DNA of 64,000 nt from Oscillospiraceae bacterium. GTDB lineage: Bacteria > Bacillota > Clostridia > Oscillospirales > Oscillospiraceae. Under the pieces are notes generated by a model, which was not told the DNA's origin, ran no database searches, and was given only the letters and a program-made list of their open reading frames with translations. The stretch lies in the NCBI GenBank assembly GCA_009777775.1, contig WRLE01000002.1, positions 124,001-188,000 of the forward strand, written 5' to 3'. Positions within the stretch are counted from its first letter, which is position 1, and the number at the start of each line of letters is the position of its first letter. Shown here piece by piece: positions 105-19,823 of the stretch. Position numbers and translations under genes: made by a program.

Positions 105-141
105 TTTTATCAACTCCTATCTATATATAGGTTTATTATTG

Positions 142-408
142 TCATTCCTCGGCTTGCTTATTGTCTTTTACTCTGTTTAAGATAAATGCTGTTATGAAAT
201 ATGTGCTGATGAAGCCAAAAAGGATATAAATTATTGCAAAATCTAGAATATATGCTGTGTTTACCATTGAGGCAAATACAATGATGATAATGATAAGTTT
301 TGTGGAAATAAGCGTTAATCCAAGTATTCGGTCCCATACTGAGGGTCCTATAATTGTACGAATCAATATCATAAATAAAAATGCAAACAATACCCAAATT
401 ACATACAT
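142..408 (-). CDS. mnhF: Mrp Na+/H+ antiporter subunit F
   Basis: Small protein of about 88 residues with three hydrophobic helices and the family signature RTIIGPSVWDRILGL near residue 20, followed by the second helix and a charged C-terminus. I chose the methionine at 408 (MYVIWVLF) because GAGGG lies seven bases upstream; the ATG at 414 sits almost on that ribosome binding site. The gene lies directly after mnhE and before mnhG, the canonical E-F-G order. The complex exchanges Na+ (or K+) for protons across the cytoplasmic membrane. Confidence 0.85.
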   Translation of the reverse strand: MYVIWVLFAFLFMILIRTIIGPSVWDRILGLTLISTKLIIIIIVFASMVNTAYILDFAIIYILFGFISTYFITAFILNRVKDNKQAEE

Positions 409-418
409 ATTCATTCCC

Positions 419-901
419 TCACAATTGTGCTTTTTGCAGCTGTTTTTCCAGCTTGCCTTTGATTAGTTCATCTGCATTTTCCAAATCCGCTGGGTCATCA
501 TCTTTTCCTCTAAGCCAAAGTACATGAATTTCTTGTTCATTAAGCTCCAGTGACAATGTCCCTGGAGTTAGTGTTATGGAATTAGCTAGCATGACATTGA
601 AAAAATCATTGTCGCTGTTGGTCTTGACTTTTACAATATCCACATTAGCTCCTTTTATAGTTAGTTTCATTGCAGCGAAACCAGCCATATATATTTGTCC
701 GATGAGATAAAAAAAATAGAGAAACAACCGCCATATTTTGATGCCGGTAATGCTCTCTATTGGAAATAGTTTATTAAAACAAGCCACACAGGCTGTGCTA
801 ACGGTTAATCCAACTATAGCTTGGGTAAGACTAAGATTTTCTGTGAGTATAATCCATATGATAGTCAGAAGGAGTACTGAAAATATGTAGTTTTTCTTCA
901 A
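419..901 (-). CDS. mnhE: Mrp Na+/H+ antiporter subunit E
   Basis: 160 residues with two N-terminal membrane helices and a cytoplasmic region ending in an acidic/basic tail. The segment NVMLANSITLTPGTLSLEL is the conserved MnhE core, and a Na+/H+ antiporter subunit E is expected immediately before F and G. The start codon is TTG at 901, supported by AAAGGTGG six bases upstream. No MnhA-D subunits are visible; upstream (to the right) is an unrelated acetyltransferase. The visible cluster therefore begins with E, with other subunits either downstream past the left edge or elsewhere. Confidence 0.88.
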   Translation of the reverse strand: MKKNYIFSVLLLTIIWIILTENLSLTQAIVGLTVSTACVACFNKLFPIESITGIKIWRLFLYFFYLIGQIYMAGFAAMKLTIKGANVDIVKVKTNSDNDFFNVMLANSITLTPGTLSLELNEQEIHVLWLRGKDDDPADLENADELIKGKLEKQLQKAQL

Positions 902-1036
902 TCGATTCCACCTTTATTTGGACAAATGGTTGCATTAAGCATATCTTTTGAAAATCTGCATTGCCGATGCATTTTCCGTTACTTCGCATTTTCCGTTAGT
1001 ATCTTTTATAGTATGGGTTACGAATTTATACCCTCA

Positions 1037-1609
1037 CTATATTTTATCGCGCAATTCGCTGCGCAGCATAATATATTTTGCATCATCCATGACTTTATTT
1101 AATTGTCTTGCGTTATATGTGCCTTCCTTCACAAAGGTAAAACCGCATTTTTCAATGACTCGCTGGGATTGATGATTATCAAGAAAATGGCATACAGTAA
1201 GAGCATCGATATCCACATTGGTAAAAGTCCAGTCAATCAATGCTTTTGCAGCTTCAGGAGTCAAGCCTTGTCCCCAATAGTCCTTTGATAGTGTGTATCC
1301 AATGTCCTTGACCTTTAGGTGCTGGTAATCGGGGTCTTCGTTTGCCCAGGATGTATGAAATCCTATGGAACCTATTACTTTGTTGTTTTCAATAAGTTCC
1401 ATGGCAAATACATTTTTTCCTTCGATGAATAATTGCAATACTTGCCTTGTTGTCCTCTTGAATCTATGGTGAGGCCAGCCTGCCATTTCACCCACACCGG
1501 GAACGGAGGCATATTCATAAAAATCATCAAGGTCGCTTGTTAGCCAAGGGCGTAGTATCAAGCGTTCTGTGATAATATATACTTTGGAAACATCAATAAA
1601 AATATCCAT
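1037..1609 (-). CDS. GNAT-family N-acetyltransferase (RimJ/RimL type)
   Basis: About 190 residues with the GNAT pattern: TERLILRPW at the N-terminus, the strand VIGSIGFHTSW, DIGYTLSKDYWGQGLTPEA as the acetyl-CoA pyrophosphate-binding region, and NHQSQRVIEKCGF near the end. This is typical of the RimJ/RimL branch acetylating protein N-termini or small amines; the substrate cannot be read. The frame extends to 1660, but the methionine at 1609 has AAGG eight bases upstream and begins the usual family N-terminus. The gene is monocistronic as far as can be seen. Confidence 0.8.
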   Translation of the reverse strand: MDIFIDVSKVYIITERLILRPWLTSDLDDFYEYASVPGVGEMAGWPHHRFKRTTRQVLQLFIEGKNVFAMELIENNKVIGSIGFHTSWANEDPDYQHLKVKDIGYTLSKDYWGQGLTPEAAKALIDWTFTNVDIDALTVCHFLDNHQSQRVIEKCGFTFVKEGTYNARQLNKVMDDAKYIMLRSELRDKI

Positions 1610-1745
1610 ATTCATAACCTTATCTAATGGTATAATAGAAACTGTATGTGCAGATGACATAAAATGAACAGTAACATATTATTCAAATTTTTCAGTATTA
1701 TACCAGACCAGCTAAAATGGGTCAAATTTATGTATAGAATTAAGC

Positions 1746-1776
1746 GAGAAACCCGCCAAATACTGACGGGTTTCTC
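1746..1776 (-). terminator. Hairpin terminator after the SLH protein gene
   Basis: A 10-bp perfect stem, GAGAAACCCG paired with CGGGTTTCTC, encloses an 11-base loop. It lies 66 bases past the stop of the SLH protein gene on the minus strand. The minus-strand tail (GCTTAATTCTAT) is only moderately T-rich; the plus-strand tail CTTTTAG is weak too. Confidence 0.6.
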
Positions 1777-1841
1777 CTTTTAGAGGAATGCTGAGATTCG
1801 CGTGTTACAATTGCACTTGCTTCACTCGATTGTATTGTAAC

Positions 1842-3977
1842 TTATTTTAATCTCCATGTTTCGTATCCATCGGCGCCTCTGATAAAGTCGTGGTCATTTG
1901 ATGCTTCAACTATTGCGGTATAGGCCCAATGGGTAGTATTTATGTCATTGAATACTTTTATTCCTGTTGGGATGTCTTCTAATCTGACTTTTCTATCGAG
2001 CATTTTATTCACTACAGTGACCACTTCAGCACGGTTAATGTTTTGCTGAGGTCTGAATGTACCATCGGGATATCCGCTGATCCAGCCTTTGGCATATGAT
2101 GAGTTTATGACGCTCACTGCCCAGTGGTTTGCAATGTCGGTGAAAGCATTTGTATACGTTTCAGCTAGATTGTCGAACCTGGATGCCATTGCAGCAAACT
2201 CCGCTCTGGTGATTGGTTGGTCAGGGCGGAAAGTGCCATCTGGATAACCTGTGATAATTCGAATGCTTGCCAGATAACTCACCGCTTGGGAATACCAAAC
2301 GCCTTCTCTAATGTCAGAGAAAACCGATGGAAGTGGATAGTCTTTATCTATTGCACTCAGAAGCCTGAAGAATATTGATGCTGCTTCTGCTCTAGTAATC
2401 GGGTGGTTCGGTCTGACGGAGTTGTCGGGGTAACCGTTTAGATATGGAACATGGTCTGCTAGAAATCCTGCTAGTGGGGGAGGTGTCGAAGGGATAGTAG
2501 TGGTTCCGCCGCTCGGGTTGCCACCACCAGGGGTGCTAGGGGATGGTCTTGTAACAACTGTGATAGATACAGTATTACTATCTTGCATTCCACTTTGTGT
2601 CTGCCAGCCTGTTATGACATTATTTGTTAAAAGCGTTGTGCCTGAGGGAATACTTACTGCCCAAGTACCAGTTGCTGTAACTGTTGCAGTTACTATAGTA
2701 TTGTTCGGCATCCTGACATTAATGGTGGCTCCAGATGTCCCAGTTCCGCTAATACTGGTATCTCCTGCATATACCGTGTTTATCGTTGGTGTGGAAAGTT
2801 TCGACAATGTTACTGGCGGCGTTACTATGCGGTCATTCCCATCTTCTTTAACTTCCTTGATAATATCATCAGCATCGCTATTGGGTCCATCTTTTCCTGT
2901 GACCTTTACAAAATTTGATATGTTTTGATTTAAAGCATTACTTGCTACTGTTACATTAAATACGATTGTCCTAATTTCACCTTTTACTATATTACCAAGC
3001 TGGGCTGTCAGCGTTCGTGTCGTGCTATCATAATCAATCGTCCCTGACCCTGATGGTTGTATAGAGGCAGAACCTGCAACATAGTTCACATATTGATTAA
3101 GTGTATCAGTCATGACTGCATTTACCCATATTGAACCATCTAATCCAGTATTTGAAATAGTAATGGTGTATATCAGCTCATCACCAACTTGAGTTGTGCC
3201 ATCGTTTCTCGTGTTGTTTACAACACCAATTTTTCTAACGGATGGTACAACAGAGTCAGCCTCCCAAGGACCTTGAATTACGAAGGCTTCTGGTTTTACA
3301 TAAGTATTGGGAGATTGAATATTATCGTTACTTGATTGTAAAAATGTCGTCCCATTACCAATCCAAGCAGAAAGTCTAAGAAATGCTTCTTGTACATGAG
3401 TAAATTCATACCGAAACATATCTTTGTCAAGCATTTGTCCATTAAGCGGCATAAAGTAATACTCAGCGATATCAACAGTTTGACCTGCCTTTATTTCGAT
3501 GGTTTCACCATCTTTTGCACATGATATTTTAGCTCCTAGGTACCTGCCATTTGCATCGTTTTGAATAGCAGTTGACCCTATACTGTCAAATCCAGACATT
3601 AGAGCTTTTACGTATTTATTAAATAATGGAATATCTCCAATGCTTTTTCCTGTGAAATATGGGTTTAATTCGCCTGGAGAGTACGGTGCAACCCTATTGT
3701 CAAATGATATCTGTAATCCTACACCGCTAATCATAAGGGAGTCTTTTTCGATACCAGCATGATGTATCTGTATTGTAGCAGTGATAAGCTTTGTTGACGG
3801 ATCTTGCATAAAGGACGTAATATACTGAGTGCCTTCATCTGCTACTAGCACTTCAGTTATCGAATTATAGAGAGGCAATCCTGTTGCTTGAGCTGCGTAA
3901 ACCATACCAATTGGCATTAATGTCAAGCTGAGTACTAGAATAAGTACTGTAGCTAATAATTGTTTTATCTTTTTCAT
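1842..3977 (-). CDS. S-layer-anchored surface protein with DUF11-like and Ig-like modules
   Basis: 711-residue secreted protein. A signal peptide (about 1-29, ending VYAAQ) is followed by a ~210-residue beta-rich domain (30-240) shared with the neighbour at 4231-7851. Next come a DUF11-type repeat (about 245-385; NNTRNDGTTQVGDELIYTI), a bacterial Ig-like module (about 395-475; TPTINTVYAGDTSISGTGTS) and a Pro/Gly/Ser/Thr linker. Three SLH domains (about 515-700, motifs such as ITGYPDGTFRPDQPITRAEF) close the protein. SLH triplets bind pyruvylated secondary cell-wall polymer, so it should be attached to the wall. It is the only SLH member of a five-gene surface cluster whose other members carry dockerins, so it is the natural candidate for an anchor. 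Ribosome binding site AAAGGATG precedes the ATG. Confidence 0.85.
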   Translation of the reverse strand: MKKIKQLLATVLILVLSLTLMPIGMVYAAQATGLPLYNSITEVLVADEGTQYITSFMQDPSTKLITATIQIHHAGIEKDSLMISGVGLQISFDNRVAPYSPGELNPYFTGKSIGDIPLFNKYVKALMSGFDSIGSTAIQNDANGRYLGAKISCAKDGETIEIKAGQTVDIAEYYFMPLNGQMLDKDMFRYEFTHVQEAFLRLSAWIGNGTTFLQSSNDNIQSPNTYVKPEAFVIQGPWEADSVVPSVRKIGVVNNTRNDGTTQVGDELIYTITISNTGLDGSIWVNAVMTDTLNQYVNYVAGSASIQPSGSGTIDYDSTTRTLTAQLGNIVKGEIRTIVFNVTVASNALNQNISNFVKVTGKDGPNSDADDIIKEVKEDGNDRIVTPPVTLSKLSTPTINTVYAGDTSISGTGTSGATINVRMPNNTIVTATVTATGTWAVSIPSGTTLLTNNVITGWQTQSGMQDSNTVSITVVTRPSPSTPGGGNPSGGTTTIPSTPPPLAGFLADHVPYLNGYPDNSVRPNHPITRAEAASIFFRLLSAIDKDYPLPSVFSDIREGVWYSQAVSYLASIRIITGYPDGTFRPDQPITRAEFAAMASRFDNLAETYTNAFTDIANHWAVSVINSSYAKGWISGYPDGTFRPQQNINRAEVVTVVNKMLDRKVRLEDIPTGIKVFNDINTTHWAYTAIVEASNDHDFIRGADGYETWRLK

Positions 3978-4007
3978 GGGAATACATCCTTTCTGTTGCT
4001 TTATGGA

Positions 4008-4074
4008 GGTATATCACATACCCACCTTGAACGCCTGTGGCGCTCTTGGCGGGGGATTTGGGTTTACCCCCGCC
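4008..4074 (-). promoter_or_regulatory. Structured leader of the SLH protein gene (three consecutive hairpins)
   Basis: Three inverted repeats stand in series just before the ribosome binding site: GGTAT/ATACC at 4008-4022, CGCC/GGCG with a 3-base loop at 4032-4042, and GGCGGGGG/CCCCCGCC at 4048-4074. They do not match riboswitch consensus sequences I know (cyclic di-GMP classes were considered). They may be an mRNA-stabilising or regulatory leader, or in part a terminator for the preceding gene. Confidence 0.4.
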
Positions 4075-4181
4075 TTATATTACGCAACATATCCAGTAGT
4101 GGGTACGATCCCAAATCTGAATCACATAGATATATGTAATAAATACCATATATCTTTCATTATTTTTCGTGTTTCCGCCTG

Positions 4182-4211
4182 TGAGAGCTGATGTATTGCA
4201 ATCAGCTCTCA
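4182..4211 (-). terminator. Hairpin after the 1206-residue dockerin protein gene
   Basis: Perfect 11-bp stem TGAGAGCTGAT / ATCAGCTCTCA with an 8-base loop, 20 bases past the stop codon at 4231. The minus-strand tail lacks a T-run, so it may be a processing or stability hairpin rather than a strong intrinsic terminator. Confidence 0.45.
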
Positions 4212-4230
4212 TAAGCATTTTTAAAGTGTG

Positions 4231-7200
4231 CTAACTAAAGAAATCTACGGTTTCTGCACCTGGGTATTCACTGGCATATCTGTTCCAGCGTTCTAGAATC
4301 ATCATGATATCCTCGTTATCTATGAGTGCATCAGCATTCATATCGCAATGCGGATTATAGAACTGATGCGTTGCATTAACTCCCAGCTCCATGAGTTCTA
4401 GAACCATCATGATGTCTTCGTTGTCGATTCTGAAGTCATCGTTACAGTCGCCCCACCAGAGGTTGAAGATACCATTTTCAGCTGTACCAGGAGAAGTAAG
4501 GGTTTTCAGGTCTGGGTCAGAAGGTGATATGGTAACATTCATCGCACGAATAAGGAAACCTGGACGTTTGATAGTCAAGACATAATTGCCAAAGGGTACA
4601 TTCTCTATGGTGAATCGGCCTGTCGGTGTACCTGGAATCAAAACAGCAACTGTTCTGAGAGCTGGATCTGCGGCTGTTCTGAATGTTGCTCTAAGCTCAA
4701 CCACTATGTTATGTTTATCCAAGAATGATTGTCCTAATTGCATATCATTAAATTCTTGTGGCCAGACTATACCTGTTACAGCACGATATGTTTTATCAAG
4801 TACTGTGACTATTACTTCATCACTTGGGTCTTTATCGGGCTCAATTTGAACGACTTTAATGGTATCACCTGTGTCTGGCTCTTTGCCATTGGGGATGTCG
4901 GCTTGCCATTTGCCATCGTTACCCACTTCGGTTTCGATTTTGGTGCCATCGTCGAGGGTAACGATAATATCGGCTCCAGGTTCGCCTGTACCTGTGATTA
5001 TTTTGTCATCCCTTGTCACTGGGTCAACTGTGGGTTCATCTGACTTAATAATGACGGTACGATCGCCTTCTTCATCTTCTATTTCTTCTTTTACATCAGG
5101 ACCTGTTGGAATGTTATCTTTACCTTCTATGGTTGCTACATTCTTGAAGGTTTTGCCATGGGCATCGGCATCAACGGTGACATAGAAAGTAACTACTCTC
5201 GTTTCGCCGCCTCTAACTCCGCCATCAATTCTAACAACAAGCTCCCTTGTGCTGATGTTATAAAAGCTATAAGTTGGTATTTGATTATCAAGGCGCGCAC
5301 TACCAGTTTCATATGTTAAGCCTTCAGGAATTGTGTCAAATACTCTAGGTTCATACCAGAGAGACTTGTCAGAACCATCGTTACTAATCTCTATGGTGTA
5401 GAGAATCCTGTCGTTTACCCTTGTTTTGTCATCTGAGCTTGTTTCATTCTCAGCATATTTTATGGAATTAGGAATAACATTTTTCTTTCCTTCAACTTTT
5501 ACCACAACAGGTAGACTGGGGTCTAAGCTGCCAACTATTTGTACTACGCTGACTTCATCATCTTCGATGAGGTTTACAGCAATGGGAACATTCACAGACC
5601 AATTGCCATTATTTCCTACTGTTGCTATACCTTTGGTGATAAAGTTGGGGAATGTGACTTCAATGCGAGCACCAGGTACGCCTGTTCCTGTTACTATTCT
5701 ATCGCCATCATTGATTTCATCCACATTGGGTTGGGGAGAACGATCTACCACATCTGGTTTTTCGTCATCATCTTCCTCATAGGGGTCTCCATCAATGAGA
5801 GCTGTGTTCTTAAAGGTTTTGCCATATGCGGTTTCATTGATTGTTGCTTGGAATGTGAGAGTTCTTGTAACTCCACCAGCTATGTCGCCAAGGTCAACTG
5901 TCAATGTACCATTGGCAAAGCTTGCAGCTGCACCAGCGGGAAGATTGTCAATCCTTGCACTATTGGCAACATAAGTGACTTCGGTGGGGAGTGTATCTTC
6001 AACAATGACATTTTCCCATAAAGACTTGGCAGGTCCATCGTTTCTGGCAACTACTGTATACTCAACGATGTCTCCCACACGCCATGTACCATCGGTTCTG
6101 CTAGTGTTTCTAGATGTTTTCAAGCCATACTTGATCACTGCAGGTCTTCCGCCGACTATGGCAGTCACTTCTTCGCTGGGGTCTTTACCGGTTTCATTTT
6201 GGACGACTTTGATTTCGTTACCTGTCAGCAGATTCACACCAGCTGGTACGTTAAATGTCCATGTTCCACCCGCTGCAACTGTAACATTGCTAGCTGCGCC
6301 ATTGGGGAGGGTGACTGTGATTTGAGCTCCAGCCACACCGGTACCTGTTATGGTTCTATCGCCTTCGGTGATGTCATCAACTGTGGGTGTACCCGAACGG
6401 TCTCTGATTGTGTGACCAGAGCCATCTTCATCGACTGTTTTGTCAAGGTCATCACCATCAATGCCGTCTTTACCGAATACACTTACACTATTTTTAACAT
6501 TCACTCCATATGCATCGGAGTTTACAGTTACATCGAATCTGATATCTACTTGTGTACCCCCTGCTATGTTACCCAGAGGTACTGTCAGAGTGTTTCCAGC
6601 GAAAGTATAGTCGGTTCCTTGAACCAAAGCTTGAGTACCACGGTATACATTACCAGCAAATGTTACGCCAGCAGGAATCACGTCAACCATCATAGCATTT
6701 GCCCATGTTGACAATGGATGTCCATCATTTTTCGCAACTACTGTGTAACGTAGGGTATCGTTTACTCGTGTGGTGCCATCGTTTCTTGTTACGTTTACCG
6801 ATGTTTTGTTTAGGCTAACATCATTGGCAGCGGAAAAGAAGTTGGGATCAAAGGATACCACTGTGGGTGCGCTTGCCAAGTATCTTTTGTAATTATTATA
6901 TTCTGGATCATTTCCACTATATGGGGTTGCTGCATATCTGATATTATATGTAGCACCATCATCAGAAACTATCGGAACACCACTTTGATAAGGTCCATTT
7001 GGTCCATTCACAGACCATTCCATGGTTGCTGCATTATATCCATTTATAACTCTGTTTGTTGTATCAGCGGTAACAAGTGGTGCTCTTTGCTCGAAATCGA
7101 TTTTAAAAGCTTGTGGAGCATGCACCCATGTCGCTGTGCTGGTGGGGTAGTTTCTGCTAGAAACCATAAAACGCGTACCATTAGCAATCCAAGTGCTTAG

Positions 7201-7851
7201 CCTTATCATTCTCGATGGGTAAGTAGACCATTGATAGCTGAACATATTAATATCAAGTAAATCTTGTCCATTAGTTGGCATGAAGTACATATGAGCTACT
7301 ATCGTTGATTCTCCTGGTGCCAAGGAAATTGTCAAATGGTCTTCTACTGTTGATATTTTTGCTCCAATAAATCTACCTGCTGCGTTGTTTTGAATTGTTG
7401 ATGAACCAACTGTATCAAATCCAAATCTTGGTGCATAAACATACTTTTTAAAATCGTCGATAGAATCGTTGGGACCACCTGAATACAGACGTAAGGCATT
7501 GTATATGTGATCTGTGTGAATAGTTGGATTGTACTCAAATGGTGATATCCTACTGTCGAAGGACAATTGTACACCAACACCCGAAATAACTATTGGTACA
7601 GCACCAACTCCAGTACTAGCATTTGTAATAGTGAATGTTGCTGTAATCAATTTGGTAGCGGGATCTTGCACAATGCTAGTTGTGTACTGTGTACTTCCAT
7701 TCGCAACTATATCAGTACCATTTAAGGCTATCAGAGGAAAAGTGGTTTCTCCTGTGCCTGGTGATGCAAATACAGCTGGAATCGTGGAGAAAAGCATGAC
7801 CAGAGTTAACAACAAGGTCAGCGCTTTTCTAGTTAGTTTGCTTCTCTTCAT
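4231..7851 (-). CDS. Large secreted multidomain protein ending in a dockerin-like module
   Basis: 1206 residues. A signal peptide (about 1-29, AVFASP) is followed by the ~230-residue N-terminal domain shared with the SLH protein. Then three DUF11-type repeats (about 355-475, 575-690, 790-910) alternate with three Ig-like modules (VDDITEGDRTITGTGV and close copies). A prealbumin/CNA-B-like fold follows (about 1015-1110; GRFTIENVPFGNYVLTIKRPG). The C-terminus has two EF-hand-like calcium loops (GDCNDDFRIDNEDIMM and CDMNADALIDNEDIMM), the layout of a type I dockerin. No catalytic domain is visible, so a structural or scaffolding role is likely. Dockerins bind cohesins; the partner is not identified. 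Confidence 0.8.
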   Translation of the reverse strand: MKRSKLTRKALTLLLTLVMLFSTIPAVFASPGTGETTFPLIALNGTDIVANGSTQYTTSIVQDPATKLITATFTITNASTGVGAVPIVISGVGVQLSFDSRISPFEYNPTIHTDHIYNALRLYSGGPNDSIDDFKKYVYAPRFGFDTVGSSTIQNNAAGRFIGAKISTVEDHLTISLAPGESTIVAHMYFMPTNGQDLLDINMFSYQWSTYPSRMIRLSTWIANGTRFMVSSRNYPTSTATWVHAPQAFKIDFEQRAPLVTADTTNRVINGYNAATMEWSVNGPNGPYQSGVPIVSDDGATYNIRYAATPYSGNDPEYNNYKRYLASAPTVVSFDPNFFSAANDVSLNKTSVNVTRNDGTTRVNDTLRYTVVAKNDGHPLSTWANAMMVDVIPAGVTFAGNVYRGTQALVQGTDYTFAGNTLTVPLGNIAGGTQVDIRFDVTVNSDAYGVNVKNSVSVFGKDGIDGDDLDKTVDEDGSGHTIRDRSGTPTVDDITEGDRTITGTGVAGAQITVTLPNGAASNVTVAAGGTWTFNVPAGVNLLTGNEIKVVQNETGKDPSEEVTAIVGGRPAVIKYGLKTSRNTSRTDGTWRVGDIVEYTVVARNDGPAKSLWENVIVEDTLPTEVTYVANSARIDNLPAGAAASFANGTLTVDLGDIAGGVTRTLTFQATINETAYGKTFKNTALIDGDPYEEDDDEKPDVVDRSPQPNVDEINDGDRIVTGTGVPGARIEVTFPNFITKGIATVGNNGNWSVNVPIAVNLIEDDEVSVVQIVGSLDPSLPVVVKVEGKKNVIPNSIKYAENETSSDDKTRVNDRILYTIEISNDGSDKSLWYEPRVFDTIPEGLTYETGSARLDNQIPTYSFYNISTRELVVRIDGGVRGGETRVVTFYVTVDADAHGKTFKNVATIEGKDNIPTGPDVKEEIEDEEGDRTVIIKSDEPTVDPVTRDDKIITGTGEPGADIIVTLDDGTKIETEVGNDGKWQADIPNGKEPDTGDTIKVVQIEPDKDPSDEVIVTVLDKTYRAVTGIVWPQEFNDMQLGQSFLDKHNIVVELRATFRTAADPALRTVAVLIPGTPTGRFTIENVPFGNYVLTIKRPGFLIRAMNVTISPSDPDLKTLTSPGTAENGIFNLWWGDCNDDFRIDNEDIMMVLELMELGVNATHQFYNPHCDMNADALIDNEDIMMILERWNRYASEYPGAETVDFFS

Positions 7852-7906
7852 GTTTTTACTTCACTCCATAACATTATTTTTTATGCTGTAATAATTTTGG
7901 GGTTGC

Positions 7907-7934
7907 TCCCCGGGGAAAGTATGCCATCGGGCAT
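7907..7934 (-). promoter_or_regulatory. Hairpin-rich leader of the 1206-residue protein gene
   Basis: The 189-base gap upstream of the gene contains the palindrome TCCCCGGGGA and the hairpin ATGCC-ATCG-GGCAT in tandem, followed by AT-rich sequence up to the start codon. It could be a folded 5' leader or the end of the previous transcript. No known riboswitch class fits. Confidence 0.3.
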
Positions 7935-8040
7935 GGGTTTTCGTCTGCGTTGTTTATTTCCTTTCTTGCCAAAATCATAACATTCTCCGAAGAGCATCAC
8001 CTCTTTTGTTTAATAATAACCCCTTAACAATACTGCTTAT

Positions 8041-9531
8041 TTAGTTAAAGGGATTCACACCATTTGAACCGGGATAATCCAGCAGCATCCTATTCCACAT
8101 TTCCAGCACCATTTGGATGTCTTCATTGTCAATTAGTCCATCGCTGTTGAAGTCACAGCCAGAGTAGTAATAAGGATGATTTGCATTTACACCCAGATTC
8201 ATGAGTTCCAATATCATCATTACGTCTTCATTGTCGATTCTACCGTCATCGTTGCTGTCTCCCCACCAGAGTCTAAACACGCCACCCTCTGCTATGCCAG
8301 GAGGTGAAAGGGTAATCACAGCGGGAGAAGCCTCACTCACCGAAACAAGCATTGCCCTCGTCAGATACCCAGGACGGTCAATGTGCAATACATAATTACC
8401 ATATGGAACATTCTCAAAAGTAAACTCTCCCAAACCGCTGCTGTCTACCAGCACGGCCTTTGTGCTAAGGTTGGCGGGGGCTGGTGTTAGGAAGGTGCTT
8501 CTCAGCTCAACTGTTATATCATGGCTTCTTACAAAAGCTTCACCCAAGCCCCATATGTCATTTGCTAACATGGGCCATACACGTCCTGTGACTGTTGGGT
8601 ACTCAGGCGGAGTGTAGAAGATGCCTTGATCCACCCATACTGCTGGATATATAAGTCCATATCCGAAAGCATGATTGTTGGGTAGGTTACCCGATGGCGT
8701 ATTTAATACATCAAGCTCATGGCAATAGCCGTCGCTGAGCATTGCGCTTTGCGTGGCTGAATGATTACCAGGTGAGCGGAGCCACATGGCAAAATAGTAA
8801 CCAACAGATGACTGAGCTGGGAGGTTAATCTTGCCAAAATTCGCTACTGCCTCAGGTGGACTTAGATAAGTGGTTGAATTGGCTCCGGGGAAATTACGAG
8901 TTAAAGAAACAAATCCTGCAGCTTCGCTATAGCTAAGACAAAAAGCTATGTTATTGCCGACTCCAACTTGATAGATAGTTGGTATGCTTAGCCCATCAAC
9001 CAAGTTCGTGGAGGAATAGCGAGTACCAAGGGTAGATAATGCATTATGCTGCATTGTGAAATCCCGCAAGCGAGCATTTTCGGGAAGGACATCATAATAT
9101 GTGTTTATACCTTGGGGGTCTGGTATGACTTCAAAGAAGTTAAACCAGCAATTGATGACACGGCTAACATTGTCCCTGGTGTATCCCACATTGGAGGTGC
9201 CGTCCTTTGGAGTTTGCCACCTTGCGCTTTGCCAGAGCGGGTCACCGTAATTAAAGGATTGCAAATTTAGAAAATTTGCTCGGACTATGAGTGAATAGTT
9301 GCCGTATTGGGCTATCTCCACCCAATTACTAATGTCTCCAGTCATTTCTGGTGTCAGGATTCTACCATCGACCACTGTGGGGTAGGGTTGTGGTGGAGGT
9401 CCTCCGCTACCTCCGCCTGGTGATGCCATCGCATATCCCATAGGCATCACTAAACCTACTGCGATAAGCAGTGTTAATACGATTGCCCATATCTTTGCGC
9501 TTGCATTGTTTTTTGAAAGCATATTGGTCAC
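8041..9531 (-). CDS. Secreted DUF6273-like protein with C-terminal dockerin-like module
   Basis: 496 residues. A signal peptide (about 1-36, AMASPGG) precedes a domain (about 50-315) opening VDGRILTPEMTGDISNWVEI and containing FAMWLRSPG and LIYPAVWV. These are the signature phrases of the DUF6273 family of Firmicutes surface proteins, whose function is unknown. A prealbumin-like domain follows (about 318-405; FTFENVPYGNYVLHIDRPG), then a dockerin-like pair of calcium loops (GDSNDDGRIDNED, CDFNSDGLIDNED). Every liganding Asp/Asn position of the loops is retained. The C-terminal 175 residues are nearly the same in the next two genes, while the N-terminal domains differ. This is the pattern of interchangeable cargo carrying one docking tag. 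Confidence 0.78.
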   Translation of the reverse strand: MTNMLSKNNASAKIWAIVLTLLIAVGLVMPMGYAMASPGGGSGGPPPQPYPTVVDGRILTPEMTGDISNWVEIAQYGNYSLIVRANFLNLQSFNYGDPLWQSARWQTPKDGTSNVGYTRDNVSRVINCWFNFFEVIPDPQGINTYYDVLPENARLRDFTMQHNALSTLGTRYSSTNLVDGLSIPTIYQVGVGNNIAFCLSYSEAAGFVSLTRNFPGANSTTYLSPPEAVANFGKINLPAQSSVGYYFAMWLRSPGNHSATQSAMLSDGYCHELDVLNTPSGNLPNNHAFGYGLIYPAVWVDQGIFYTPPEYPTVTGRVWPMLANDIWGLGEAFVRSHDITVELRSTFLTPAPANLSTKAVLVDSSGLGEFTFENVPYGNYVLHIDRPGYLTRAMLVSVSEASPAVITLSPPGIAEGGVFRLWWGDSNDDGRIDNEDVMMILELMNLGVNANHPYYYSGCDFNSDGLIDNEDIQMVLEMWNRMLLDYPGSNGVNPFN

Positions 9532-9636
9532 TTCCTCTTCATAATCTATTAATCAAAACTGTATGCTTGTATCAGTGTATCTGCTTTCGGTAAAAAAATA
9601 ATAAGAATCCGGTGCTTTTCTATAAAACAGTGTCAA

Positions 9637-11019
9637 TCATCTAAATGGGTCAACGCCGTTGGAGCCAGGATAATCCAGTAACATCCTGTTCCACATTTCC
9701 AGCACCATTTGGATGTCTTCGTTGTCTATGAGTCCATCACCATTAAAATCGCAACCAGCGTAATACAGTGGGCTATTTGCATTTACACTCAAATTCATGA
9801 GTTCTAATATCATCATGACATCTTCGTTGTCTACTCTTCCGTCATCGTTGCTATCTCCCCACCACAGACGAAATACTCCGCCATCAGCTATACCAGGTGG
9901 CGATAGATTAATAACACTGGGTGATGACTCTGTAACGGAAACCAACATAGCCCTAGTTAAATACCCTGGTCGGTTGATATGCAAGATATATTCACCCACA
10001 GGAACATTTTCAAATGTAAACTCACCCAAACCACTGCTATCTACTAATACAGCTCTTGTGCTAAACTGAGAGGGTGCTGGTGTCAAAAATGTCGATCTCA
10101 GCTCAACTATCACATCGTGGCTTCTTACAAAAGCTTCTCCAATACCCCAAATATCACCAGCAAGCATGGGCCACACGCGACCTGTGACTGTACCTCTATA
10201 TTCAAAAATTCGCGAATCCACCCACAGAGCAGGATAAACGAAACCATTGGAGACATTCATAACCGGACCCATTTGGAAAACCCTGCCTATGCATGTGGGT
10301 GTTTCATAACTCAAACAGCCAGCCGTATTAGCCACATCGCCTGGGGAACGCAGCCACATATAATGCACATATTCCTGAGGAATATATATTTTATTGTAGT
10401 TGGCAATCGCTTCGGAAGAGCTTATCTGATTGGCTATGGAGAGTTCCCGCATAAAGTATAATTGGGAACAAAAGTTCGCCGCTTCGCTATAGCTCAGAGC
10501 AAAAGCAATATCGTTTCCTATACCCACTTGGTATTGGCTTGGAGTGCTGAGACCATCTGTCAATGATTTGTTAGGATTACAGGTGGTTCCTATCATATTA
10601 ATGGCATTATTTTGCATGGTGTAGCTTCGTAGACGAGCATTTGTAGGTAGCCTGTCTGCTTCTCCAGTGGCTGTGCCATTGAACCAATCGTTTATCTTGT
10701 TTCGGACAGTGGATGTAGAGTAAGAAGTTGACGAGCCAAATGGGGTTTTTTGCCATGTATAGTTTCCTTTTGTGCCGGTATATACATTGATGTCAATAAA
10801 TATAGACCGTACTATCAGCGAATAACCTCCGCTTTGTGCAATTTCCACCCAATCGGCAGTATCGCCAGTCTCTTCGGGTGTTAGTATCCTACCATCGACA
10901 ACATAAGGTGTATTAGATGGTGAGGCATAAGCATTGAGCGGTGTTAGCAGTCCCACTAAGAATAAAAGGGATAGGACTATGGAAAATAGTTTTGAGCATT
11001 TTGTGTTTATATAGGACAT
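9637..11019 (-). CDS. Secreted DUF6273-like protein with C-terminal dockerin-like module (paralogue)
   Basis: 460 residues: signal peptide (about 1-32), DUF6273-like domain (about 40-270; VDGRILTPEETGDTADWVEI, YMWLRSPGD, FVYPALWVD), prealbumin-like domain (280-365) and dockerin-like module (380-450; GDSNDDGRVDNED, CDFNGDGLIDNED). It is a diverged tandem duplicate of the gene at 8041-9531, closest in its C-terminal half. Ribosome binding site AGAGAGGAAAG precedes the ATG. The gap to the next gene is 105 bases. Likely exported and displayed at the cell surface; the ligand or activity of the DUF6273 domain is unknown. Confidence 0.78.
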   Translation of the reverse strand: MSYINTKCSKLFSIVLSLLFLVGLLTPLNAYASPSNTPYVVDGRILTPEETGDTADWVEIAQSGGYSLIVRSIFIDINVYTGTKGNYTWQKTPFGSSTSYSTSTVRNKINDWFNGTATGEADRLPTNARLRSYTMQNNAINMIGTTCNPNKSLTDGLSTPSQYQVGIGNDIAFALSYSEAANFCSQLYFMRELSIANQISSSEAIANYNKIYIPQEYVHYMWLRSPGDVANTAGCLSYETPTCIGRVFQMGPVMNVSNGFVYPALWVDSRIFEYRGTVTGRVWPMLAGDIWGIGEAFVRSHDVIVELRSTFLTPAPSQFSTRAVLVDSSGLGEFTFENVPVGEYILHINRPGYLTRAMLVSVTESSPSVINLSPPGIADGGVFRLWWGDSNDDGRVDNEDVMMILELMNLSVNANSPLYYAGCDFNGDGLIDNEDIQMVLEMWNRMLLDYPGSNGVDPFR

Positions 11020-11050
11020 AGTTGCTTTCCTCTCTGACTAGTCATATTGT

Positions 11051-11105
11051 CTGCGCAAAGCAGTTTTTCACCAACAAATTATTTCGATGAAACTGCTTTG
11101 CGCAG
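11051..11105 (-). terminator. 16-bp stem hairpin between two dockerin-protein genes
   Basis: CTGCGCAAAGCAGTTT at 11051-11066 is perfectly complementary to 11090-11105, around a 23-base loop. It lies 11 bases past the stop of the 783-residue protein gene. The minus-strand tail has no T-run, so it may act as a partial terminator or protect the 3' end. Confidence 0.5.
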
Positions 11106-11116
11106 TTATCTCTGAC

Positions 11117-13468
11117 TTAATTAAAGGGATCTACACCATTGGTACCAGAATAATCAAGGAGCATACGATTCCACATTTCAAGCACCATTTGGATGTCTTC
11201 ATTGTCTATAAGACCATCGCCGTTAAAGTCGCAACCTGCATAGTAATAGGGGTGGTTGGCATTAACGCTCAAGTCCATGAGTTCAAGTATCATCATTACA
11301 TCTTCGTTATCTATTCTGCCATCGTCATTACTGTCTCCCCACCACAAACGAAATACACCATTTTCATTTAAAGCGGGCGGTGACAAGGTGATGATATTCG
11401 CATCATTCTCTGAAACTGTGACAAGCATTGACCTGACAAGGTATCCTGGACGCCTTATGTGGAGGACATAGTTGCCATATGGAACATATTCAAAGGTAAA
11501 CTCACCAAGTCCGGTGGAATCGAGCAACACAGCCTTTGTACTCAAATCCGGATGGGCAGGTGTCAGAAAAGTCGGTCTGAGCTCAACTACAACATCATGA
11601 CTTTCAATGAAGCTTTTTCCAATACTCCATATGTCATCTGTCAGCATTGGCCACACTTGTCCTTTTACCGTCCTGCCTAGGTCGTACATATATGTGATAT
11701 ATTTCGTCTCTCCACCTTGTATCGTACCTTGGGGAGCATCGCTTCCACTAGCCAGATACCCGCTCCGGTATCCATAAATATCAACTGGAGCATAGGGTCC
11801 GTAATTACCCGCATCGACAGTAAGTGTGAGCGGACTGCCAGCAAGGTTTCCTCCGGTTTTGCTATCTTTATATGTAATTACAATGGTAGCGTGTTTGACA
11901 TATTGGTAGGTGATGTTAATTACTTGTCCACCGTTTATAGTGCCTGAAGCAGGATCGCTGCCTGGTGCCAACACTCCCTGTCCATAGCCAGCAACATTAA
12001 TCGCTTGGTATGGTCCGTATGAACCAGGACTTACTATATGATGCTCAGGTGTAACGAGATTTGCTAGGGTATCGCGGTCTATGTGTCGGACATTTATTGT
12101 CGCTTGCCTGGAGTATTGATAAGTAATAGTTATAACTTGTCCACCGCTTATTGTACCTGAAGCGGGGTCGCTGCCTGGTGCCAATACTCCCGGTCCATAA
12201 CCAGCAACACTAATCGCTTGGTAGGGTCCGTATGAACCAGGATTTACTATATGATGCTCAGGTGTGACGAGATTTGCTAATGTATCTCGGTCTATGTGTC
12301 GGACATTTATTGTCGCTTGCCTGGAGTATTGATAAGTGATGGTTATAACTTGTCCACCGCTTATTGTACCTGAAGCGGGGTCGCTGCCTGGTGCCAATAC
12401 TCCCTGTCCATAACCAGCAACACTAATTGCTTGGTAGGGTCCGTATGAACCTGGATTTACTATGTGGTGCTCAGGTGTGACGAGATTTGCTAATGTATCT
12501 CGGTCTATGTGTCGGACATTTATTGTCGCTTGCCTGGAATAACGATATGTGATGGTAATTGTCTGTCCAGCACTAATTGTGCCTGAAGCGGGTGCGCTAC
12601 CTGGTGCCAATGTTCCCTGTCCGTAGCCAGAGATACTGACCGCAGGGTAGGGCCCATATGAGCCTGGGTTTACTTTGTGGCTAGCAGGTGTAACGAGATC
12701 TGCCCCAGTATTCATATCTATATGCCTAACATTGATGGTAGCTTGGGCAGGTTGAGAGCTGTCAGCATATTTCACCCAAACAGCAGGAGCTAGACCAAGT
12801 GTACTATTGGTGGTGGTGGTCTGATGATAATGGGTTGACGATGCGTACATTGCTGTCGAAGTGCTACTTCCAGGATATGTTTGTAAATTATGACTCCTGA
12901 GCCAAAATGCCGATTTCGCCCCGACTAAAGTGCTGTAGGCAATTCCGTTTTCAGGATAAGTAACCCTATCAACATCGTGGTGGGAAAGGGCAAAGAATAT
13001 GCTATTTGTTCGACTTCCTGCCATTGTGGCAGTAGGTGCTGAACCGATACCAGGAGTTTGAGGAAGATTGCTTGTGACTCCTTGCCAACCTTCGGCAGTC
13101 AAGTTGGGAACCACCGCAATTGTTTTCATTTGAGTAGTTTGTGAATATGCCGAATCCATCGCCGCTTGCAAGGTATTTCCTCCAAGGGTTGCTGATCCCC
13201 CATCTGCGCGAAATTGGGTTTTGCTATAACTGTCTCCATAAATAATCAACATGGCATAAGATTGTTGATTAATTGTACGTTTTTCAATAACAGTCCAGTT
13301 TTTTCCATCTATAACAACGTTGGAGCCAAGGTTTGTTCTACCGATTGTGTCTGCTATGTCTTGTGGATTTGATGGGCTTGCGCTTGCTTGAATAAATAAA
13401 CCCGATAGCAATATTAATACAATCAAAATCGTTATCAGGCGTGCTACACCTTTGGTATTTTGCAACAT
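11117..13468 (-). CDS. Secreted protein with five MucBP-type repeats and dockerin-like module
   Basis: 783 residues. A signal peptide (about 1-30) precedes a DUF6273-like domain (about 45-238; SAFWLRSHN, LGLAPAVWVKY). Five 71-residue MucBP-type repeats follow (about 240-600; ATINVRHIDRDTLANLVTP, GTISGGQVITITYQYSR). MucBP repeats occur in adhesins that bind mucus glycans; here they may act as spacers or binding units. A prealbumin-like domain (about 605-690) and a dockerin-like pair (GDSNDDGRIDNED, CDFNGDGLIDNED) end the protein. Repeats 2-4 are almost identical at DNA level. It is the first gene of the surface cluster in transcription order. Confidence 0.8.
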   Translation of the reverse strand: MLQNTKGVARLITILIVLILLSGLFIQASASPSNPQDIADTIGRTNLGSNVVIDGKNWTVIEKRTINQQSYAMLIIYGDSYSKTQFRADGGSATLGGNTLQAAMDSAYSQTTQMKTIAVVPNLTAEGWQGVTSNLPQTPGIGSAPTATMAGSRTNSIFFALSHHDVDRVTYPENGIAYSTLVGAKSAFWLRSHNLQTYPGSSTSTAMYASSTHYHQTTTTNSTLGLAPAVWVKYADSSQPAQATINVRHIDMNTGADLVTPASHKVNPGSYGPYPAVSISGYGQGTLAPGSAPASGTISAGQTITITYRYSRQATINVRHIDRDTLANLVTPEHHIVNPGSYGPYQAISVAGYGQGVLAPGSDPASGTISGGQVITITYQYSRQATINVRHIDRDTLANLVTPEHHIVNPGSYGPYQAISVAGYGPGVLAPGSDPASGTISGGQVITITYQYSRQATINVRHIDRDTLANLVTPEHHIVSPGSYGPYQAINVAGYGQGVLAPGSDPASGTINGGQVINITYQYVKHATIVITYKDSKTGGNLAGSPLTLTVDAGNYGPYAPVDIYGYRSGYLASGSDAPQGTIQGGETKYITYMYDLGRTVKGQVWPMLTDDIWSIGKSFIESHDVVVELRPTFLTPAHPDLSTKAVLLDSTGLGEFTFEYVPYGNYVLHIRRPGYLVRSMLVTVSENDANIITLSPPALNENGVFRLWWGDSNDDGRIDNEDVMMILELMDLSVNANHPYYYAGCDFNGDGLIDNEDIQMVLEMWNRMLLDYSGTNGVDPFN
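11890..12540 (-). repeat. 213-bp tandem repeats inside the MucBP gene
   Basis: The same landmark (CTTGCCTGG) recurs at 12103, 12316 and 12529, exactly 213 bases apart. The intervening units are nearly identical, encoding repeats 2, 3 and 4. The in-frame 71-codon period means copy number can change by recombination without breaking the gene. Confidence 0.9.
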
Positions 13469-13927
13469 AGGGAATTCCTCTCTTTACTTTATGCCTTTTT
13501 TGCTATGGAAAAATGTTGCTATTCATAGGATAATAACCCATTTCATTTAAGAGGTAACTAGCGAACGAGAAGTCTTGATAATCGTCAGTTTCGATACCTG
13601 GATTAATTCCGTGAAATCTAGCAGATTTATATGCTTTTATTCGACCCCAATCCCAATTGCCGCAGTGTTCGGCATTTGGTTGGGTGAATTTTTAATTAGA
13701 TGCCTAAGTTTGATTTTGCCAATGTTATTATACTTTTCGTTTTTGATGTGCTTAGTTGTGTTTCGCTCTTCAATAATATCGCATTTGTAGTTGTAGTTTC
13801 ACTCTTCTTCTTGTATAGATACTGTTATTCTATACTATAAATTTTATTCGCTGCTCTTTCGATGCTCTTTTATGATCTTCGCTCTTCAATTATTTTTTAA
13901 GGTTTCGTTTCGCTGTGTTTTGATATA
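13469..13927. other. Intergenic region, 459 bases, no gene seen
   Basis: AT-rich stretch between the surface cluster and the small ribbon-helix-helix gene. It holds the ribosome binding site and presumably the promoter of the MucBP-protein gene (AGAGAGG before its ATG). An inverted repeat GTATAG-N11-CTATAC lies at 13813-13835. The plus-strand frame in 13575-13790 has no ribosome binding site and poor composition, so I do not call it. Confidence 0.5.
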
Positions 13928-14137
13928 CTACTTTGCTAAGGTGTCTGCAGCTTTGTTATTTGATTTCTTTTTCTTTTCATAGCTGCCATTATTGGCTGTT
14001 TCCAAGCCAAGTGATAGTAGACAGCGGTAAAGCTCGGAATAAGGTTTGTTGTAAAATAATTTTCGCTTTAATTCGTCCGCTCCGGCTTCAATGTCAGGTG
14101 TGATATACAGCATGAACCGCTTCATATCATTAGGCAT
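13928..14137 (-). CDS. Small ribbon-helix-helix-like DNA-binding protein
   Basis: 69 residues (MPNDMKRFMLYITPDIEAG...). A short strand (RFMLYI) and two helices (PDIEAGADELKRKLF; YSELYRCLLSLGLE) fit the RHH/CopG fold, followed by a lysine-rich tail. The start at 14137 has a G6 ribosome binding site six bases upstream; the longer frame to 14161 reads through that site. It is divergent from the RHH gene at 14393, and the space between contains paired palindromes, so the two probably regulate each other or themselves. No toxin gene is adjacent, which speaks against a simple toxin-antitoxin pair. Confidence 0.55.
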   Translation of the reverse strand: MPNDMKRFMLYITPDIEAGADELKRKLFYNKPYSELYRCLLSLGLETANNGSYEKKKKSNNKAADTLAK

Positions 14138-14207
14138 AATCATCCCCCCTCTCTCATACATTGCATTTTACAATGCTTTGACTATGCTTTATCGTAATGG
14201 TGTATGA

Positions 14208-14252
14208 GTGTATCAGGCATACTGTCGTAATTATAGTGCATTACTGATACAC
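14208..14252. promoter_or_regulatory. 9-bp inverted repeat between divergent RHH genes
   Basis: GTGTATCAG at 14208-14216 and CTGATACAC at 14244-14252 are exact inverted copies 27 bases apart. The core TGATAC/GTATCA recurs in the palindrome at 14354-14371, which suggests one regulator binding all of these half-sites. Confidence 0.55.
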
Positions 14253-14343
14253 CTGTCAAGTACAATTTTCTACTTCTTTTGTATGTTATTCCATCTTTTG
14301 CAATTTTCATCATTATTTTTTCGTCTTTTCTTTAACACTTCTC

Positions 14344-14372
14344 TTTACATCGGTGATACACTGTGGTATCAT
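14344..14372 (+). promoter_or_regulatory. Promoter with overlapping 18-bp palindromic operator for the RHH gene
   Basis: TTTACA (14344-14349), 17 bases, TATCAT (14367-14372). The near-palindrome TGATACACTGTGGTATCA (14354-14371) covers the spacer and -10 box, a classical position for autorepression. The predicted transcript would begin very close to the GAGGTG ribosome binding site, giving an extremely short leader. Confidence 0.55.
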
Positions 14373-14392
14373 GTACACCGAGGTGATTACGT

Positions 14393-14599
14393 ATGGCTAC
14401 CAAAAAACCCAGATATATGATTTCCGTGACTACTGAAATGTTTGAGCAAATCGAGGATTTTCGTTTCAACAATCGTTTTCAAACACGTTCAGAGGCGACA
14501 ACGGAACTCTTGCGTATTGGTATCGAAGTGCTAAAAAAACAGCAAGAAGACGAAGAAAAAGCCGAAAAAACTAAAAATATTGAAAAAAACAAAAAATAA
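14393..14599 (+). CDS. CopG/ribbon-helix-helix family regulator
   Basis: 68 residues. The N-terminal ~45 are a standard RHH fold: strand RYMISVTTEMF, helix EQIEDFRFNNRF, turn QTRSEA, helix TTELLRIGIEVLKK. A charged lysine/glutamate tail follows. GAGGTG lies seven bases before the ATG. RHH dimers bind short inverted repeats in the major groove; a matching 18-bp palindrome sits over the predicted promoter, so autoregulation is likely. Partner genes or targets beyond the divergent neighbour are not evident. Confidence 0.75.
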   Translation: MATKKPRYMISVTTEMFEQIEDFRFNNRFQTRSEATTELLRIGIEVLKKQQEDEEKAEKTKNIEKNKK

Positions 14600-14718
14600 A
14601 TCTAAAGTTGATGTTAATTAGTACGATAACTATATAAGTTGATGAATTTAGTAGAGTTAACCGAGTCATAGGAGTAAACTCTTATCGCTTTCCATGCCCA
14701 ACATGGTAACAAGCGCTA

Positions 14719-14764
14719 ATTTTCTACATTTATTGTAGAATTGTTTGTAATAAATGTAGAAAAT
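14719..14764. promoter_or_regulatory. 14-bp perfect inverted repeat with three TGTAGAA boxes
   Basis: ATTTTCTACATTTA (14719-14732) and TAAATGTAGAAAAT (14751-14764) form a perfect inverted repeat with an 18-base loop. The loop carries a further TGTAGAA box (14734-14740) that could pair with the left arm instead. It lies ~160 bases upstream of the Rrf2 regulator. A promoter-like TTGACA-N17-TACCAT (14777-14805) follows immediately. Operator or attenuator are both possible. The rest of the 322-base gap (14600-14921) holds nothing else I can name. Confidence 0.5.
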
Positions 14765-14921
14765 GCTGAATTTGAGTTGACAATTGCGCAAAAATACATT
14801 ACCATATATGATGGTGAGTTATCGCGTCGAATGTATAATTCTGATAAAAAAATATATAATGCAAGTTGTGAAACCTACACCGGAATGACTAAGGGGTATA
14901 GTAATAACGGAAAGGCAGAAG

Positions 14922-15332
14922 ATGAAAATTTCGACACAAACAAGGTATGCAGTACGTTTTTTGCTGGAGCTTTCCAACACGGAAACCAAAGAAAAACCAA
15001 CGACATTGCATCAAATTGCGGAAAAACAGGGTATCAGCGATAATTATTTAGAATCGATTGCCACTAAGCTAAAGAAAAATGGGTATTTACGTAGCTATAA
15101 AGGCAGCGGTGGAGGATATTGTCTCTCACGAGATATAGACGATATCACATTGGGTGAAATAATGCGTTTAATGGAGTCCACGTATTTCCAAGTCCATTGC
15201 ACCCCCGATGCGAAAACTACCTGCGTAAATTATGAGACTTGCCAAATTGCCAACGCATGGGATTTGCTGGAACAGCATATTTCCGATTTGGTAAACAATC
15301 TCAAACTATCACAATTGGTGTGCGAAGACTAG
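14922..15332 (+). CDS. Rrf2-family (IscR-like) iron-sulphur transcription regulator
   Basis: 136 residues opening MKISTQTRYAVRFLLEL, the diagnostic Rrf2 start. It has a winged helix-turn-helix (IAEKQGISDNYLESIATKLKKNGYLRSYKGSGGGYCLSR, split here by wing residues) and three cysteines in the pattern C-x7-C-x5-C (about residues 92-107), the place where IscR and relatives bind a [2Fe-2S] cluster. It should sense iron-sulphur status, oxygen or NO. No iscS/iscU follows, unlike the usual operon; the next gene is convergent. The start at 14922 has GGAAAGG upstream. Confidence 0.88.
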   Translation: MKISTQTRYAVRFLLELSNTETKEKPTTLHQIAEKQGISDNYLESIATKLKKNGYLRSYKGSGGGYCLSRDIDDITLGEIMRLMESTYFQVHCTPDAKTTCVNYETCQIANAWDLLEQHISDLVNNLKLSQLVCED

Positions 15333-15438
15333 ACTGTAGTTATACAGTAGCACCAATCATAGATACATAAAAATTATGAAGATAATAAGAAGATAAATTA
15401 TCTAATTTTTATCTAATTTTGTCCATTGAACAAATGCA

Positions 15439-19710: not shown

Positions 19711-19764
19711 AAAATATTTCCATTTCTCAGTTTAATATGTGAGATTTTTTGTTAGTTTACACAC

Positions 19765-19793: not shown

Positions 19794-19823
19794 TAAAAAT
19801 TGTCAAACAATAATGCAATCAAA

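What the first reader, a model, noticed from the sequence alone, without database searches (positions are those of the whole stretch)
1842..13468. Dockerin-tagged surface proteins next to an SLH-anchored relative: a possible non-cellulosomal cohesin-dockerin assembly
Four consecutive secreted proteins end in the same prealbumin-like plus dockerin-like tag, while their N-terminal parts differ (DUF11/Ig array, two DUF6273-like, DUF6273-like plus MucBP). The fifth gene has SLH wall anchors and no dockerin. None has a glycoside hydrolase domain. Type I dockerins exist to dock on cohesins, so these look like interchangeable parts of a surface structure rather than a cellulosome. What is seen: the repeated calcium loops and SLH domains. 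What is inferred: that they assemble together.
Basis: partly seen in the sequence, partly recalled or inferred. Interest (0 to 1): 0.75.

Follow-up and report, generated by a model that had tools for sequence, protein, structure and literature searches.

The report
Dockerin-tagged surface assembly with hidden cohesins
A bacterium carries a five-gene operon whose surface proteins bear cellulosome-type plugs (dockerins) but no plant-digesting enzymes, and the wall-anchored partner appears to carry a matching socket so diverged that sequence searches miss it.

Summary
Four genes (4231-13468, minus strand) end in the same X-module+dockerin tag (52-86% identical, all calcium ligands kept); the fifth (1842-3977) ends in three SLH domains. 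The tag matches the XDoc of cellulosome scaffoldins (type II), so 'type I' is wrong. No dockerin protein found in this 2.8 Mb genome carries a recognised glycoside hydrolase domain.

The missing socket probably lies inside the locus. The SLH protein and the tagged gene-2 protein share an N-terminal domain ('ND') with no Pfam or PDB sequence match. Two low-confidence AlphaFold models of ND both have only cohesins in ranks 1-35 and 1-37 of a structural re-alignment. The order client-adaptor-anchor recurs in two termite-gut MAGs, in different neighbourhoods. One of them has three XDocs, two NDs and no Pfam cohesin. I propose a compact, non-cellulosomal assembly: SLH-anchored ND, ND-XDoc adaptor, and XDoc clients with C-lectin-like DUF6273 heads.

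Binding is inferred. Model confidence is low, profile-profile comparison with cohesins found nothing, and an ordinary SLH-anchored cohesin elsewhere in the genome could be the receptor. Judged a new variant of a known kind.

The parts
11117..13468 (-). gene 5, client: signal peptide, DUF6273-like head, four MucBP-like repeats, XDoc tag (783 aa)
   Evidence: Dockerin_1 23.5 bits; MucBP only E 0.063
9637..11019 (-). gene 4, client: DUF6273-like head + XDoc tag (460 aa)
8041..9531 (-). gene 3, client: DUF6273-like head + XDoc tag (496 aa)
4231..7851 (-). gene 2, adaptor: ND + three DUF11/Big_6 pairs + XDoc tag (1206 aa)
1842..3977 (-). gene 1, wall anchor: ND + DUF11/Big_6 + three SLH (711 aa)
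3273..3878 (-). ND of gene 1 (predicted cohesin-like receptor)
7087..7758 (-). ND of gene 2 (predicted cohesin-like receptor)
11120..11677 (-). XDoc tag of gene 5; dockerin at 11183-11338
9640..10194 (-). XDoc tag of gene 4; dockerin at 9703-9858
8044..8601 (-). XDoc tag of gene 3; dockerin at 8107-8262
4234..4791 (-). XDoc tag of gene 2; dockerin at 4297-4452
2022..2441 (-). three SLH domains of gene 1 (2022-2144, 2193-2321, 2379-2441)
12749..13375 (-). DUF6273-like head of gene 5 (weakest of the three)
10198..10914 (-). DUF6273-like head of gene 4
   Evidence: 41% identical to an L021 protein with DUF6273 at 35.6 bits
8602..9414 (-). DUF6273-like head of gene 3
   Evidence: 47% identical to gene 4 head
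14230..14259 (-). 12/12 consensus sigma-70-type promoter-like site, the best upstream of the unit
   Evidence: inferred operon promoter
1746..1776 (-). 14-pair terminator-like hairpin after gene 1
   Evidence: inferred operon end

Best explanation
The operon encodes a small self-contained cohesin-dockerin assembly on the cell wall that is not a cellulosome. Gene 1 is the anchor: its SLH domains hold it in the wall and its N-terminal ND is a receptor of cohesin-like fold. Gene 2 is an adaptor: its XDoc plugs into an anchor ND, its own ND accepts another XDoc, and its DUF11/Ig array acts as a spacer. Genes 3, 4 and 5 (and an RCC1-XDoc protein on another contig) are interchangeable clients whose XDoc plugs into an ND and whose heads are C-lectin-like DUF6273 domains, so what is displayed is binding or adhesion domains, not cellulases. 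Shown: domain content, gene order, recurrence in two other genomes, co-occurrence of ND and XDoc, and cohesin-like models. Inferred: that ND binds XDoc, the order of docking, and the ligands of the heads.
For: (1) The XDoc tag matches solved scaffoldin XDocs (profile E 2.2e-12) and keeps every calcium ligand. (2) Two ND models from the same five-sequence family: ranks 1-35 are all cohesins (best Z 8.1, 4wi0_A; first non-cohesin Z 6.0) and ranks 1-37 are all cohesins (best Z 8.9; first non-cohesin Z 6.9). 4wi0/4u3s chain A was crystallised with the very XDoc (chain B) that is the tag's best sequence match. (3) The order client, adaptor, anchor recurs in two MAGs from termite-gut samples with different flanking genes. 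(4) ND was found in 3 genomes, always beside XDoc genes; of 299 other family genomes none has ND and one has only a weak dockerin match to the tag model. (5) Genome G300 has 3 XDocs, 2 NDs and no Pfam cohesin. (6) Cluster C5 of the same genome has the same anchor/adaptor logic with recognisable cohesins: cohesin+SLH and cohesin+dockerin proteins. (7) A promoter-like site and a terminator-like hairpin bracket the five genes.
Against: Model confidence is low (mean pLDDT 54 and 55, pTM 0.60 and 0.59). Z near 8 is close to the level the tool warns about. Plain Foldseek ranks adenovirus knobs and other beta-sandwiches first. hhalign of ND against a 43-sequence cohesin profile found no homology (prob 2%), and ND hits nothing in Pfam or among PDB sequences. 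The two models share one alignment, so they are not fully independent. The genome has a conventional SLH-anchored cohesin that could be the receptor. A Coriobacteriia MAG has one XDoc without ND.
Confidence: 0.6

Rival explanations
1. The tags do not dock on ND but on the conventional single-cohesin SLH protein on contig C5 (or other Pfam cohesins of the genome). ND is a carbohydrate- or peptide-binding beta-sandwich with another job.
For: A 450-aa cohesin+SLHx3 protein exists and passes the Pfam cut-off, with an architecture like SdbA/ScaF. ND shows no sequence homology to cohesins.
Against: Genome G300 has three XDocs and two NDs but no Pfam cohesin. The C5 cohesin has its own cohesin-dockerin proteins nearby. 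The conserved gene neighbour is the ND-SLH protein.
Confidence: 0.22
2. The XDocs are no longer dimerisation plugs: stabilising, intramolecular or vestigial C-terminal domains, and the operon is a set of independent secreted adhesins.
For: No dockerin partner has been demonstrated; one MAG has a lone XDoc protein with no ND or Pfam cohesin.
Against: Both calcium loops are intact in all eleven XDocs compared (D-N-D-[DE]-D) and loop positions 10-11 are kept symmetric in most. Anchor and adaptor stay beside clients in three genomes.
Confidence: 0.12
3. The locus is an accessory arm of a true cellulosome whose enzymes were missed.
For: XDoc-type modules are typical of cellulosome scaffoldins.
Against: All nine dockerin proteins detected in the genome lack a recognised GH, PL or CE domain at the thresholds used, carrying instead LRR, RCC1, Ig, Glug, DUF6273-like and fn3 domains.
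Confidence: 0.03

Closest known systems
Acetivibrio cellulolyticus / C. thermocellum anchoring system (ScaA/CipA XDoc, ScaB adaptor, SLH-borne ScaC/ScaF/SdbA)
   Same: X-module+dockerin plug; SLH-anchored receptor protein (ScaF and SdbA have one type II cohesin + SLH); adaptor tier (PMC3413522, PMC5590126).
   Different: No CBM, no enzymes, no type I cohesin array; plugs sit directly on adhesin-like clients; receptor not recognisable as a cohesin by sequence; one receptor per protein.
Non-cellulosomal cohesins (Archaeoglobus fulgidus 2xdh; Clostridium perfringens 2jh2, 2vo8, 8ose)
   Same: Cohesin fold outside a cellulosome; 2jh2 and 2vo8 are the best structural matches of one ND model.
   Different: Here the receptor is not recognisable by sequence, is SLH-anchored, duplicated on an adaptor, and apparently co-transcribed with its proposed plugs.
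DUF6273 C-lectin proteins ('tentaclins' of gut phages)
   Same: DUF6273 head followed by other modules; DUF6273 was reported as C-type-lectin-like by AlphaFold+DALI (PMC10743442).
   Different: Here the heads are bacterial surface clients with an XDoc tag; no retroelement was looked for systematically.
Cohesin+SLH / cohesin+dockerin cluster on contig C5 of the same genome
   Same: Same anchor and adaptor logic in the same cell.
   Different: Receptors there are recognised as cohesins; the dockerins do not belong to the window's tag family.

Membership tests
XDoc (X-module + type II dockerin) | two F-hand calcium loops with ligands at 1,3,5,9,12 | tested here: met
   D-N-D-D-D in both loops of all four window tags
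XDoc (X-module + type II dockerin) | X-module directly before the dockerin, similar to solved XDocs | tested here: met
   profile hits 4u3s_B E 2.2e-12, 4wi0_B, 2b59_B
XDoc (X-module + type II dockerin) | binds a cohesin | not testable with these tools
   needs binding assay or complex prediction
Cohesin (for ND) | sequence similarity to cohesins (Pfam PF00963 / profile) | tested here: not met
   no Pfam hit; hhalign prob 2% with a shallow alignment, Neff 2
Cohesin (for ND) | cohesin jelly-roll fold | tested here: inconclusive
   two low-confidence models, both with only cohesins in ranks 1-35 / 1-37, Z 8.1 and 8.9; Foldseek not specific
Cohesin (for ND) | co-occurs with dockerins | tested here: met
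SLH-anchored wall protein (gene 1) | three SLH domains | tested here: met
   Pfam E 6.4e-38, three stretches
Cellulosome | dockerins on glycoside hydrolases or other carbohydrate enzymes | tested here: not met
   no recognised carbohydrate-active enzyme domain in any of the nine dockerin proteins found
Cellulosome | scaffoldin with several cohesins and a CBM | tested here: inconclusive
   only 3 Pfam cohesins in the genome, at separate places; CBMs not searched genome-wide
DUF6273 (client heads) | Pfam PF19789 above cut-off | tested here: inconclusive
   not in the window proteins; 35.6 bits in a 41% identical relative
MucBP (gene 5 repeats) | Pfam PF06458 above cut-off | tested here: not met
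   14.5 bits against 23

The most novel reading that the evidence does not exclude
ND, and the related-looking N-terminal domains of the SLH proteins beside the other dockerin genes of this genome (contigs C4 and C15) and of an L022-genome locus, are cryptic cohesins beyond the reach of current sequence models. Termite-gut Firmicutes would then hold several parallel, insulated cohesin-dockerin surface systems that display lectin-like, LRR and RCC1 domains instead of enzymes, and cohesin/dockerin counts would be a poor proxy for cellulosomes.
Probability: 0.4. Interest if true: 0.75.

Novelty: new variant of a known kind. Interest (0 to 1): 0.6.

Why it matters
Cohesin and dockerin transcripts in soil-feeding termite guts have been read as a sign of active cellulosomes (PMC7313118). 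This genome shows a dockerin complement in which no recognised enzyme is tagged. If ND is a receptor, the module is a minimal three-tier plug-and-socket display system, useful for finding more such systems and as a source of new orthogonal binding pairs. The claim is cheap to test because plugs and sockets come from one operon.

Tried and rejected
Pfam, NCBIfam and PDB-sequence searches for ND: nothing. hhalign of ND against a cohesin profile: no homology. Search of ND in 150 and then 300 family genomes, by single sequence and profile: only the window's genome. [quoted passage not shown] that second family (A4) was also found only in its own source places, so the link stays a lead. True cellulosome: rejected because no recognised enzyme carries a dockerin. 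Plain Foldseek: no specific fold. Rfam: no hit in 1-20000. Literature searches did not turn up a described system of this kind, within an open-licence library only.

Full report
WHAT IS THERE. Five minus-strand genes occupy 1842-13468. In the direction of transcription they are gene 5 (783 aa), gene 4 (460), gene 3 (496), gene 2 (1206) and gene 1 (711). All begin with a hydrophobic stretch that reads as a signal peptide (by eye). Genes 2-5 end in one tag of about 186 residues, 52-86% identical. The best promoter-like site upstream is a 12/12 consensus at 14259-14230, and a 14-pair terminator-like hairpin follows gene 1 at 1776-1746, consistent with one transcription unit; a 77-aa ORF at 13928-14161 would lie in its leader. 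These are pattern matches, not evidence of transcription.

THE TAG. The tag is an X-module (Pfam sees CarboxypepD_reg-like) plus Dockerin_1. Against PDB sequences its profile hits only XDoc modules: 4u3s_B (E 2.2e-12), 4wi0_B, 2b59_B, 3kcp, 5g5d and 5k39. These are type II dockerins with their X-module, the plug that fixes scaffoldins to SLH-anchored proteins (PMC3413522, PMC5590126). Both calcium loops are intact in all window tags and carry the same residues (NE) at positions 10-11 in both halves; a fifth tag on contig C6 (RCC1-XDoc) has the same NE/NE, which suggests, but does not show, one shared specificity. In genomes G300 and G301 client and adaptor tags differ at these positions (GR or GK against SK or NR), which would fit two specificities.

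THE GENOME. Pfam finds nine dockerins and three cohesins in 2.8 Mb. None of the nine dockerin proteins has a recognised carbohydrate-active enzyme domain at the thresholds used; they carry LRR, RCC1, Ig, Glug, fn3, PKD and DUF6273-like domains. One cohesin protein is cohesin+SLHx3 (450 aa, contig C5), and nearby are proteins with a cohesin-like domain and a dockerin. There are five dockerin loci; four have an SLH gene beside or within two genes. With about 57 SLH frames (counted by hand) in an assumed 2600 genes this is unlikely by chance (2e-5 to 2e-4), a rough figure that ignores clustering of SLH genes.

THE SHARED N-TERMINAL DOMAIN. Genes 1 and 2 share ND (43-48% identical), without a Pfam or PDB sequence match. 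AlphaFold of gene 1's ND gave mean pLDDT 53.7 and pTM 0.60; of gene 2's ND 55.3 and 0.59. Both are low, with a better-defined beta-sandwich core. VIA-align against solved structures put only cohesins in ranks 1-35 for the first (Z 8.1 down to 6.0, first non-cohesin 3zgi at 6.0) and ranks 1-37 for the second (Z 8.9 down to 7.0, first non-cohesin 6.9). Foldseek alone is not specific, and the tool notes that Z near 8 is common. A profile-profile test against 43 cohesins collected from family genomes found nothing, though the ND alignment is very shallow (five sequences). I therefore call ND cohesin-like by model and by position, not a proven cohesin.

RECURRENCE. A scan of 84,980 species genomes with the tag gave three loci, all from higher-termite gut MAG sets (sample codes occur in PMC7024585 and PMC7886697). 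In an Oscillospiraceae MAG (L021) and a Bacillota MAG (L022) the tag lies in the order DUF6273-like client, ND-DUF11/Big_6-XDoc adaptor, ND-...-SLH anchor, between different neighbours each time and different from those in the window. In the third (Coriobacteriia, L023) a lone XDoc protein occurs without ND. ND is present exactly twice in each of the first two genomes. G300 (L021) has three XDocs and no Pfam cohesin; G301 has five cohesin matches, four over the cut-off. In 300 genomes of the window's family only the window's genome has ND, and beyond it only one other genome gives a weak, dockerin-only match to the tag model, although ordinary dockerins occur in 132 and ordinary cohesins in 80 of the 300, the window's genome counted. 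Trees group the two adaptors' tags (93/91) and the two clients' tags (82/88) of G300 and G301, so the adaptor/client split probably predates their separation; the window's clients 3-5 form a later local expansion (100/100).

HOW IT PROBABLY WORKS. Anchor ND in the wall receives the adaptor's XDoc or a client's XDoc; the adaptor's own ND receives another XDoc; DUF11/Ig arrays give reach. What is presented are DUF6273-like heads, which are C-lectin-like according to PMC10743442, so adhesion or ligand capture is the likely output. Only domain content, order, recurrence and co-occurrence are shown; docking and ligands are inferred.

A LEAD BEYOND THE WINDOW. SLH proteins beside the C4 and C15 dockerin genes share another N-terminal domain (27% identical to each other, E 1e-9, a match that includes the signal peptide). 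In G301 contig C183 two neighbouring proteins carry domains that look alike, one with SLH, one with a dockerin and a classical cohesin. This repeats the anchor/adaptor pattern, but its relation to ND or to cohesins was not significant.

LIMITS. MAGs are incomplete, so 'no cohesin in G300' could be a gap. The two ND models come from one alignment of five sequences. No complex was predicted. The structural re-alignment only re-ranks Foldseek's candidates, and no other beta-sandwich of these proteins was folded as a control.

Noticed in passing
window 13928-14599: Two small ORFs (77 aa, minus; 68 aa, plus, weak TraM-like hit, looks ribbon-helix-helix) flank the 12/12 promoter-like site, with three TGATACAC/GTGTATCA copies at 14208, 14245 and 14354, as if an autoregulator controls the operon.
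   Followed up: partly
L013:10462-20000 and L014:1-4543 (contig C5): A second cohesin-dockerin cluster: cohesin+SLH, cohesin-like+dockerin, and a 2835-aa BspA-LRR protein with cohesin-like domain and dockerin.
   Followed up: partly
L015:2-11387 (contig C6): RCC1+XDoc protein with a C-terminal sub-threshold cohesin match, followed by a very large Kelch/RHS-repeat protein with a subtilase-like N-terminus.
   Followed up: partly
L085:154-14000 (G301 contig C183): Dockerin proteins (LRR; M64-peptidase-like) next to an SLH protein and a dockerin+cohesin protein that share an uncharacterised N-terminal domain.
   Followed up: partly
G000 whole genome: About 57 open frames with SLH domains, many for a 2.8 Mb genome.
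   Followed up: no
window 19885-23397 and 61937-64000: Several cytosine-methyltransferase-like genes with probable restriction partners.
   Followed up: no
L023:3138-5732: Coriobacteriia MAG protein with the XDoc in mid-protein and C-terminal hydrophobic segments, without ND or Pfam cohesin in its genome.
   Followed up: partly
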